64,000 nt of DNA from Pseudomonas cannabina. Its GTDB lineage: Bacteria; Pseudomonadota; Gammaproteobacteria; Pseudomonadales; Pseudomonadaceae. Location: contig NZ_FNKU01000001.1 in assembly GCF_900100365.1 (NCBI RefSeq), positions 4,105,501 through 4,169,500 on the forward strand, read 5' to 3'. Shown in pieces: positions 61,703 through 64,000 of this stretch. The notes beneath the pieces were generated by a model. It worked only from the letters and a program-made list of their open reading frames with translations, made no database searches and was not told where the DNA came from. Both the position numbers and the translations under genes were made by a program. How positions within the stretch are numbered: position 1 is the first letter of the stretch; every line of letters begins with the position of its first letter.

Positions 61703-62686
61703 ATGAAAGCCCTGCTCTGCAAAGCCTTTGGTCCCGCCAACACATTGGTGCTTGAAGACGTCCCCGGCCCGGAGATCAAGAAGAACGAAATTCTGCTCGA
61801 CGTCCACGCGGCCGGGGTCAATTTCCCCGACACACTGATCATCGAAGGCAAATACCAGTTCAAACCGCCCTTTCCGTTTTCCCCGGGCGGCGAAGCGGCG
61901 GGCGTGGTATCGGCCGTCGGTGAAAAAGTCACCCACCTCAAACCCGGCGACCGGGTCATGGCCCTTACCGGGTGGGGCAGCTTTGCCGAGCAGGTCGCCG
62001 TGCCGCACTACAACGTGCTGCCCATTCCGGAGGGCATGGACTTCACCACCGCCGCCGCGTTCAGCATGACCTACGGCACCTCCATGCATGCGCTCAAACA
62101 GCGCGCCAACCTGCAACCCGGCGAAACCCTGTTGGTGCTTGGCGCATCCGGCGGCGTCGGCCTGGCCGCCGTGGAAATCGGCAAAGCCCTCGGCGCACGC
62201 GTCATCGCCGCCGCCAGCAGCGCGGAGAAACTGGAAGTCGCCAGAACCGCAGGCGCCGACGAACTCATCAACTACAGCGAAACCAGCCTAAAGGACGAAA
62301 TCAAACGCCTCACCAACGGCAACGGCGCCGACGTGATCTACGACCCAGTCGGCGGCGACCTCTTCGACCAGGCCATCCGCACCATCGCCTGGAACGGCCG
62401 CATGCTGGTCGTCGGCTTCGCCAGCGGCCGCATCCCGGATCTGCCCGTCAACCTGACGCTGCTCAAAGGCGCCTCGGTGGTGGGCGTGTTCTGGGGCTCG
62501 TTTGCCCAGAGACAGCCACAGGACAACGCCGCGAACTTCAAGCAGTTGTTTACGTGGTTTGGCGAGGGGAAATTGAAGCCGCTGGTGTCGACGGTTTATC
62601 CGCTGGAGCGGGCTGGAGAGGCGATTGATTTGTTGGGTGGGCGTAGGGCGGTGGGGAAGGTGGTGATCATTGTGAAGCAGACCTGA
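61703..62686 (+). CDS. NADPH:quinone oxidoreductase family protein
   Basis: A 327-residue medium-chain reductase without the structural zinc loop. It has the N-terminal catalytic fold (VHAAGVNFPDTLIIEG, FPFSPGGEAAGVV) and the NADPH site LVLGASGGVGLAAVEIGKAL. It belongs to the QorB/crotonyl-type zeta-crystallin group; the substrate is not defined. Confidence 0.9.
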   Translation: MKALLCKAFGPANTLVLEDVPGPEIKKNEILLDVHAAGVNFPDTLIIEGKYQFKPPFPFSPGGEAAGVVSAVGEKVTHLKPGDRVMALTGWGSFAEQVAVPHYNVLPIPEGMDFTTAAAFSMTYGTSMHALKQRANLQPGETLLVLGASGGVGLAAVEIGKALGARVIAAASSAEKLEVARTAGADELINYSETSLKDEIKRLTNGNGADVIYDPVGGDLFDQAIRTIAWNGRMLVVGFASGRIPDLPVNLTLLKGASVVGVFWGSFAQRQPQDNAANFKQLFTWFGEGKLKPLVSTVYPLERAGEAIDLLGGRRAVGKVVIIVKQT

Positions 62687-62812
62687 GGAACCAGCCTATT
62701 TCCCAAAAAATCAAGCACCTCAATACATAGGGAGGCGCTGATTTATTCGATTTTTCGTCCCTGCAACGCTCTGGAGGCCTTGATTTATCTGGGGGCAACA
62801 GCTGGGTTTTAG

Positions 62813-62912
62813 GGAAGGTCTGAAAAAGCCTTTTCTTCAAAAGTCGAAGCCAGTAAATACAGGCGCTCCAGCCCGGTTCCTCTCCAAAAAAATGGGCTTT
62901 TTCAGAGGATAC
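62813..62912. mobile_element. 100-bp MITE (Y), copy 1
   Basis: Ends are GGAAGGTCTGAAAAAGCC and, inverted, GTATCCTCTGAAAAAGCCC, sharing a 12-bp core TCTGAAAAAGCC. TTAG precedes it (62809-62812) and follows it (62913-62916). It is identical over all 100 bases to the inverted copy at 63664-63763. Confidence 0.9.
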
Positions 62913-62916
62913 TTAG

Positions 62917-63015
62917 GGAGACGCTGATTTATTCTAAAACCCAGCTGTTGCCCCCAGATAAATCAAGGCCTCCAGAGCGTTGCAGGGACGAAAAATCGAA
63001 TAAATCAGCGCCTCC
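62917..63015. mobile_element. 99-bp MITE (X), inner copy
   Basis: It runs from GGAGACGCTGATTTATTC to GAATAAATCAGCGCCTCC with 17 of 18 terminal bases inverted-repeated. TTAG flanks both sides (62913-62916 and 63016-63019), fitting YTAR. Same sequence as the outer copy in the opposite orientation. Confidence 0.9.
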
Positions 63016-63098
63016 TTAGAATAAATCAGCGTCTCCATAGGTATGTCATCAATGCTTAAAGACTCAAACAACATAGCCATACAGACAAGGAGAACTGT

Positions 63099-64000
63099 AT
63101 GGCCACACGAAAAAAGCGACAAACAAATATATTGCATGACCGGACAAGCGGGACCGTTAACATAAGTCACGGCAGCTCGCCCAAGCCACAAAATACTGGC
63201 TTCTTTGGAAGTGGCTTTACCAACACTGGGGCGTCTAGTCGTAAACGCAGACGCAGACGCCTGCATGCTCGTGCACAACAGCAAGCAGCAGCGAAAGCAC
63301 ATGCAGAGGCCCAGGCACTGGCAGAACGTCAGGCCGCAAAACATGCAGCTCCTCACGCTAGAATTCAAGCAGAAGCCGCTGAAAGAGCCCGAGCGGAAGC
63401 AGAGGCATATGCTCGAGCCGAGAGAAGTAAGCCACATCGTAATTTTATTGAGAAACTGTCCGATGCTTATCCGATAGTTCAATCGGAACTGGCATCGACT
63501 CATGCAATATCCACTGAATTACTTAAAAGCTCCATTCAGAAAGAAGTCGATTCTGGTTTGACTCCAGACTTCAAGGGCGTGAGCGAACAACAGCTCTCGG
63601 ATTTAATACTTAATGAAAAAGCCACTATAAATTATTTGCTTTCAGGTAAGCGAGAACAACTAGGTATCCTCTGAAAAAGCCCATTTTTTTGGAGAGGAAC
63701 CGGGCTGGAGCGCCTGTATTTACTGGCTTCGACTTTTGAAGAAAAGGCTTTTTCAGACCTTCCCTAGACAGGCAAATTGCTGCTGAACAGCTGAATCCAA
63801 GCAGACTCCATTCCACACAGCAGGATTATCGAAACTATCTCGAGCACCATAGCCAAGGTGATCCCGCTCGCGTACAGCAGGCCCATGAAGCGTGGACACG
63901 CTCGTTATCCAAAATCTACGAAGCTAAACTTCTTGCTGAGTCGATCACACTGCTCAATGAGCAGTCGGCAGCGCTGTCCATTCGTCATGCCGAGCTGTCG
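63099..64000 (+). pseudogene. Bacteriocin-like (S-type pyocin/colicin-like) gene interrupted by a MITE, 3' end missing
   Basis: The ATG at 63099 has AAGGAG upstream. Residues 1-55 are polar and Gly/Ser-rich (GTVNISHGSSPKPQNTGFFG) followed by RKRRRRRLHARAQQQ. A long Ala/Glu/Arg helix of coiled-coil type comes next. The open frame ends in a TGA at 63672-63674 supplied by the inserted MITE. Skipping the MITE and one CTAG, the frame continues REQLDRQIAAEQLNPSRL and stays open to the window end, with QQDYRNYLEHHSQGDPARVQ and LLNEQSAALSIRH. This architecture resembles S-type pyocins and colicins; killing domain and immunity gene lie outside. Family call is moderate. Confidence 0.6.
63664..63763. 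mobile_element. 100-bp MITE (Y), copy 2, inside the bacteriocin-like gene
   Basis: The exact reverse complement of 62813-62912. CTAG flanks it on both sides (63660-63663 and 63764-63767), fitting the YTAR duplication of IS5-type elements. The 104-bp net insertion shifts the frame by two and brings in a TGA after eight bases of the element. Confidence 0.93.

What the first reader, a model, noticed from the sequence alone, without database searches (positions are those of the whole stretch)
63099..64000. Bacteriocin-like gene knocked out by a 100-bp MITE with a perfect CTAG duplication
The frame is closed by a stop inside the element. Removing 63664-63763 and one CTAG restores an open frame to the end of the window with matching composition. 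Together with the three elements just upstream in its promoter region, the locus appears to be a repeated landing site and the bacteriocin is probably lost in this strain, possibly leaving an orphan immunity gene downstream.
Basis: partly seen in the sequence, partly recalled or inferred. Interest (0 to 1): 0.72.

Follow-up and report, generated by a model that had tools for sequence, protein, structure and literature searches.

The report
MITE-broken bacteriocin gene with spared immunity
A gene for an antibacterial DNA-cutting protein in a Pseudomonas syringae-type bacterium is interrupted in two places by tiny jumping DNA elements, one of a kind already known to move, while the neighbouring self-protection gene is still whole; the case is well supported but of a familiar sort.

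Summary
Confirmed and extended. The 100-bp element at 63664-63763, flanked by CTAG, matches the published MITEPsy1 of P. syringae in length, both 18-nt ends and target site. The interrupted gene is an S-type pyocin / colicin-like DNase (PF06958, PF21431). Past the window, two more MITEs ("MITE-B", 99 bp, no name found) sit back to back inside the DNase domain and a third splits the cassette's third gene. The three upstream elements are one nested stack. Homologues run across both toxin insertion sites: 94 of 120 listed database proteins and 8 of 15 loci compared. The immunity gene is open here and in 14 of 15 loci, but gene length alone predicts that, so selection for an orphan immunity gene is not supported. 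The genome holds 66 MITEPsy1 and 257 MITE-B cores, so landing here is part of a genome-wide burst. Another DNase bacteriocin with its immunity gene is open elsewhere in the genome. In passing: a conserved hairpin over the start codon, and an unannotated third cassette gene. Ordinary in kind, clean in detail.

The parts
63099..63663 (+). 5' part of the S-type bacteriocin gene (188 codons up to the element; frame stops at 63672-63674 inside it)
   Evidence: homologous to the N-terminal part of intact bacteriocins; no Pfam match of its own
63664..63763 (+). MITEPsy1 copy that interrupts the gene, 100 nt
   Evidence: ends GTATCCTCTGAAAAAGCC / GGAAGGTCTGAAAAAGCC as published; identical to many copies in the genome
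63660..63663 (.). left CTAG target duplication
63764..63767 (.). right CTAG target duplication
63770..64000 (+). start of the second piece of the bacteriocin gene; it goes on past the window to G000:C1:4170404 or so, with Pyocin_S and the first half of the DNase domain
62731..63036 (-). MITE-B copy B1 (99 nt in two parts, 62731-62812 and 63020-63036), split by the two elements nested in it; duplication ATAG at 62727-62730 and 63037-63040
62813..62912 (-). second MITEPsy1 copy, nested in B1, duplication TTAG
62917..63015 (+). MITE-B copy B2, nested in B1 next to MITEPsy1, duplication TTAG
63076..63103 (+). hairpin over the start region: ribosome-binding AAGGAG in the loop, ATG in the 3' arm; untouched by the elements
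61703..62686 (+). quinone oxidoreductase-like (qor) gene, the conserved left neighbour of the bacteriocin slot

Best explanation
This is a chromosomal S-type pyocin cassette (bacteriocin, immunity gene, third gene of unknown role) in a P. syringae-group genome, lying between qor and a glpT-like transporter gene, that has been disabled by recent insertions of non-autonomous IS5-type MITEs. MITEPsy1 landed on a CTAG in the 5' third of the toxin gene: it shifts the frame and brings a stop, so only a 191-residue N-terminal fragment can be made. Two MITE-B copies landed back to back on one TTAG inside the DNase domain and break the protein a second time. A further MITE-B splits the third gene. The immunity gene has no hit. 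Shown: the elements, their duplications, the pieces and their domains, the intact homologues. Inferred: that the ISPsy2-like element (1194 bp, near-identical ends) moved MITEPsy1, that the 1209-bp IS5-type element (same 10 terminal bases) moved MITE-B, and that the strain makes no active toxin from this locus.
For: Frame and element. Identity as MITEPsy1: ends, length and target as in PMC3189936. Domains of the separate pieces: PF06958 4.6e-33 and first half of PF21431 4.1e-22 in the middle piece, second half of PF21431 6.3e-24 in the last piece. Homologues without inserts: 94 of 120 listed proteins; Pseudomonas sp. KUIN-1 has a 636-aa open toxin gene at the same place after qor, with 93% identical immunity protein. 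Recent event: the inserted copy is 100% identical to other copies and the three pieces have no other stop in frame. Partner elements.
Against: No expression or activity data. Seven of the 15 loci compared have a broken toxin gene by other means, so the gene could have been dispensable before the MITEs came. The order of the insertions is not known. In the published trap assay MITEPsy1 moved but ISPsy2 itself did not (PMC3189936, passages).
Confidence: 0.95

Rival explanations
1. The immunity gene is kept by selection as an orphan shield against neighbours that still make this bacteriocin.
For: It is intact here although the toxin and the third gene are not; open in 14 of 15 loci, and in 6 of the 7 loci whose toxin is broken. 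A second place in the genome has a tandem pair of PF01320 genes (one with a TAG inside) and no DNase domain beside it. KUIN-1, with an open toxin, has a 93% identical immunity protein, so a matching attacker may exist.
Against: Length alone explains it: at the toxin's rate of breakage 1.26 broken immunity genes of 15 are expected and 1 is seen; for the third gene 3.4 are expected and 3 seen. With 6 of the 22 YTAR sites counted in the cassette's genes, the immunity gene would escape three coding insertions with probability 0.39.
Confidence: 0.2
2. The gene was already dead or unused, and the MITEs are passengers.
For: Four relatives carry a single in-frame stop in the toxin gene and two more have frame breaks; the promoter-side spacer also holds three elements.
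Against: In this genome the three toxin pieces have no other lesion in frame, and the start region with its hairpin is intact.
Confidence: 0.15
3. The pieces are used: the 191-residue fragment or an internally started DNase-less piece has a function of its own.
For: A 191-aa open frame remains, and an identical protein stands for 2 member sequences on 4 contigs in the protein collection, the window's genome included.
Against: Its last three residues come from the element; the fragment lacks the Pyocin_S and DNase domains; the middle piece stops inside MITE-B.
Confidence: 0.03
4. Assembly artefact.
For: Repeats this numerous do cause misassembly.
Against: Each insertion has a clean target duplication and unique flanks; the chromosome contig is 5.8 Mb and unbroken here; the truncated 191-aa protein is listed on 4 contigs.
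Confidence: 0.02

Closest known systems
MITEPsy1 (Bardaji et al. 2011, PMC3189936; passages and abstract read)
   Same: 100 nt, no gene, both 18-nt ends identical, 4-nt duplication at CTAG; known to interrupt a gene (avrPphE/hopX1) with a 104-nt insertion and a frame change
   Different: 66 copies here against 6 in strain 1448A; TTAG (6 of 25 perfect duplications) besides the published CTAG and YTAA; target is a bacteriocin gene
S-type pyocins with colicin-type HNH DNase (pyocin S2, AP41, S8; colicin E2/E7/E9)
   Same: Pyocin_S translocation domain, Col-Pyo DNase domain, PF01320 immunity gene directly downstream; sequence matches to solved pyocin S2, S8, AP41 and colicin E9 chains
   Different: gene interrupted in two places; cassette has a third gene
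102-bp MITE of P. syringae pv. actinidiae Psa3 (PMC6053426, passages read)
   Same: numerous (78 copies) and inactivates accessory genes such as hopAV1 and restriction-modification genes
   Different: attributed there to ISPsy25, another IS family; sequence not compared here

Membership tests
MITEPsy1 | 100 nt long without a gene | tested here: met
MITEPsy1 | ends GGAAGGTCTGAAAAAGCC and GTATCCTCTGAAAAAGCC | tested here: met
   identical letters
MITEPsy1 | 4-nt target duplication at CTAG or YTAA | tested here: met
   CTAG at this site; 25 of 30 copies with a perfect duplication: 15 CTAG, 6 TTAG, 4 CTAA
MITEPsy1 | related to ISPsy2 (1194 nt, IS5 family) | tested here: met
   1194-bp elements with near-identical ends and DUF772 transposase in the genome, five measured; mobilisation itself not testable
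S-type pyocin with DNase domain | Pyocin_S and Col-Pyo_DNase domains | tested here: met
   on separate pieces; on four intact relatives
S-type pyocin with DNase domain | linked PF01320 immunity gene | tested here: met
   3.3e-36
S-type pyocin with DNase domain | one open reading frame for the toxin | tested here: not met
   three pieces: it is a broken member, not a working one
S-type pyocin with DNase domain | kills related strains | not testable with these tools
   none

The most novel reading that the evidence does not exclude
The slot between qor and glpT in the P. syringae group holds a three-gene bacteriocin operon with two undescribed parts: a start-codon hairpin, kept with paired changes, that puts the ribosome-binding site in its loop and would place toxin translation under an RsmA/CsrA-type switch; and a conserved third gene (helical bundle plus long coiled coil) needed for toxin handling or release. 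The operon erodes at one rate per base across its genes, by MITE bursts or by stops, which makes surviving immunity genes by-products rather than shields.
Probability: 0.3. Interest if true: 0.5.

Novelty: new member of a known kind. Interest (0 to 1): 0.32.

Why it matters
It gives a clean natural example of a MITE burst disarming an interbacterial weapon while sparing the immunity gene, and it offers a simple null model (breakage in proportion to gene length) against which claims of selected orphan immunity can be tested. The unnamed MITE-B (257 cores) and the conserved start hairpin are leads for P. syringae genome evolution and bacteriocin control.

Tried and rejected
Rejected: that the P5 and P6 frames are a second bacteriocin and a stray gene; in relatives they are one ~245-279-aa gene split here by MITE-B. 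Rejected: that toxin loss is the rule in the P. syringae group; the species sample suggested it (7 of 10 loci with qor at least 93% identical broken, 0 of 5 others, one-sided Fisher 0.019), but the protein collection lists many intact ones. The loci were chosen by similarity to this locus, so that contrast is weak. Rejected: a special landing hotspot.

Dropped before counts: B copies and A copies at locus edges or with incomplete ends; one search used the 120 listed of 125 proteins found, themselves from the 7996 candidates scored. The shuffle control for the hairpin is mixed: pairs with a change on both sides reached by 191 of 500 shuffles, cells with such a change by 2 of 500, and the structure was taken from these same sequences. 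Of 12 folds, 10 have the stem as best structure, G026 an irregular form, G115 a different hairpin.

Full report
Observation. The frame from 63099 ends at 63672-63674 within the element at 63664-63763. The element is 100 nt with CTAG on both sides. Only the frame from 63770 is open after it, 2 nt out of phase with the upstream frame. The window is G000:C1:4105501-4169500 of a 6.39-Mb genome in 9 contigs, so the sequence past 64000 could be read.

The element. Passages of PMC3189936 give MITEPsy1 as 100 nt with ends GGAAGGTCTGAAAAAGCC and GTATCCTCTGAAAAAGCC and a duplication at CTAG or YTAA, 6 copies in P. syringae pv. phaseolicola 1448A, probable origin from ISPsy2 (1194 nt), shown to transpose, and earlier found in avrPphE as a 104-nt insertion. 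The element here has exactly these ends. The genome has 66 cores with up to 3 mismatches, 65 of them exact, control 0. Of 30 distinct copies with flanks, 25 have a perfect duplication: CTAG 15, TTAG 6, CTAA 4. In 398 Pseudomonas genomes, one per species, a match occurs in 3: this one, G347 (95%) and a 29-nt match in G409. Among 72,556 plasmid records 8 have it, all Pseudomonas.

MITE-B. The other upstream elements are a 99-nt element with ends GGAGACGCTGATTTATTC and GGAGGCGCTGATTTATTC. The genome has 257 cores with up to 3 mismatches, control 0. Of 42 distinct copies, 41 have a perfect 4-nt duplication: CTAG 16, TTAG 11, CTAA 8, TTAA 6. Matches occur in 5 of 398 genus genomes, three of them weak, and in 48 plasmid records, all Pseudomonas. 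I found no name for it in the searches made. The genome has 141 DUF772 (IS5-type transposase) matches. Ten of the 30 loci fetched carry an element with MITEPsy1-like ends, 1194 bp in the five measured. Sixteen aligned copies of the largest class give a 1209-bp element whose ends share the first 10 bases with MITE-B and which also has YTAR flanks.

Anatomy. Upstream, B1 (62731-63036) contains MITEPsy1 (62813-62912) and B2 (62917-63015); the stack ends 59 nt before the start codon. In the gene, MITEPsy1 lies at 63664-63763. Past the window, two MITE-B copies lie back to back at G000:C1:4170405-4170503 and 4170508-4170606, each with TTAG, and a fifth at 4171480-4171578 with CTAA (converted from L031). 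Counting all seven elements the cluster is far denser than uniform placement; counting the four primary landings it is expected 0.06 times per genome.

The gene. The middle piece has Pyocin_S (4.6e-33) and the first half of Col-Pyo_DNase (4.1e-22), the last piece the second half (6.3e-24). The break by MITE-B lies between the halves. The next gene is a PF01320 immunity gene of 90 codons (3.3e-36), close in sequence to Im7 and pyocin S2 immunity structures. P0005 and P0006 are the halves of a third gene, one open frame in 12 of 15 loci.

Relatives. In 28 of 298 genus genomes the 191-aa piece has a match. Of 20 relatives' stretches downstream of qor, 3 hold proteins of this kind and 17 none. I compared 15 distinct cassette loci; 13 have qor just upstream, G115 and G026 do not in the stretch fetched. 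The toxin is one open frame in 8 of 15 (G018, G295, G115, G026, G391, P. caricapapayae, KUIN-1, P. congelans) and broken in 7 (this genome, G094, G334, pv. cilantro, P. cerasi, P. tremae, P. avellanae), in four of these by a single in-frame stop. Immunity is open in 14 of 15, broken in P. tremae. The third gene is open in 12 of 15. Breakage in proportion to length predicts 1.26 and 3.4 broken immunity and third genes; 1 and 3 are seen. In the protein collection, 94 of the 120 proteins listed for the middle piece contain the 5' piece up to residue 180 or beyond, the middle and the last piece in one chain; the nearest, from pv. maculicola by its source's name, is 91% identical in the middle and 99% in the last piece.

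The rest of the genome. PF21431 has two further half-matches here and one full match on C2 in a 677-aa frame followed by an 87-aa immunity gene, 40% and 46% identical to the pieces here. PF01320 also matches a tandem pair at C1:3999086-3999726, one with a stop, with MITE-B just upstream and MITEPsy1 copies within 5 kb; no DNase domain lies there, other toxin types were not sought.

Start hairpin. The start region folds as GCCAUACAG-ACAAGGAGAA-CUGUAUGGC. The stem is the best structure in 10 of 12 loci folded, z -3.4 to -7.0 in those ten. Two pairs change on both sides among 6 distinct sequences; slid controls have none, but shuffles reach that count in 191 of 500. The likeness to RsmA/CsrA sites (GGA in a loop) is recalled, not tested. 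One paper search on this found no relevant title (listing only).

Verdict. A real, multiply interrupted S-type bacteriocin gene; MITEPsy1 is known, gene interruption by it is known, and the immunity gene's survival needs no special cause. Papers: PMC3189936 abstract and passages; PMC6053426, PMC10969869 and PMC3390384 passages; all others seen only in search listings.

Noticed in passing
window 63076-63103; homologous places in 12 loci: Hairpin over the start codon of the bacteriocin gene with the ribosome-binding AAGGAG in its loop, kept across loci with a few paired changes; looks like an RsmA/CsrA-type site (recalled likeness).
   Followed up: partly
L031:3138-4050 (G000:C1:4171137-4172049): Third gene of the cassette, split here by MITE-B; one open frame in 12 of 15 loci, no Pfam family, 60 homologues with Pseudomonas as the only genus named; predicted helical bundle plus a long helix.
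   Followed up: partly
whole genome: MITE-B, a 99-bp element with 257 cores in this genome and YTAR duplications; shares 10 terminal bases with a 1209-bp IS5-type element; no name found.
   Followed up: partly
G000:C1:3999086-3999726 (L184): Tandem PF01320 immunity genes, one with a stop, without a DNase domain beside them, MITE-B just upstream and three MITEPsy1 copies within about 5 kb.
   Followed up: partly
G000:C2:107915-110211 (L179): Second DNase-type S bacteriocin gene and its immunity gene, both open, with an IS5-type element and MITE-B next to them.
   Followed up: no
L191:5615-6207 (P. congelans DSM 14939): Behind an open toxin and immunity gene lies a second, C-terminal DNase piece with its own immunity gene, like a spare toxin-tip module.
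   Followed up: no
L092, L098, L172, L173: Four relatives carry a single in-frame stop in the toxin gene, with different stop codons at different places.
   Followed up: no
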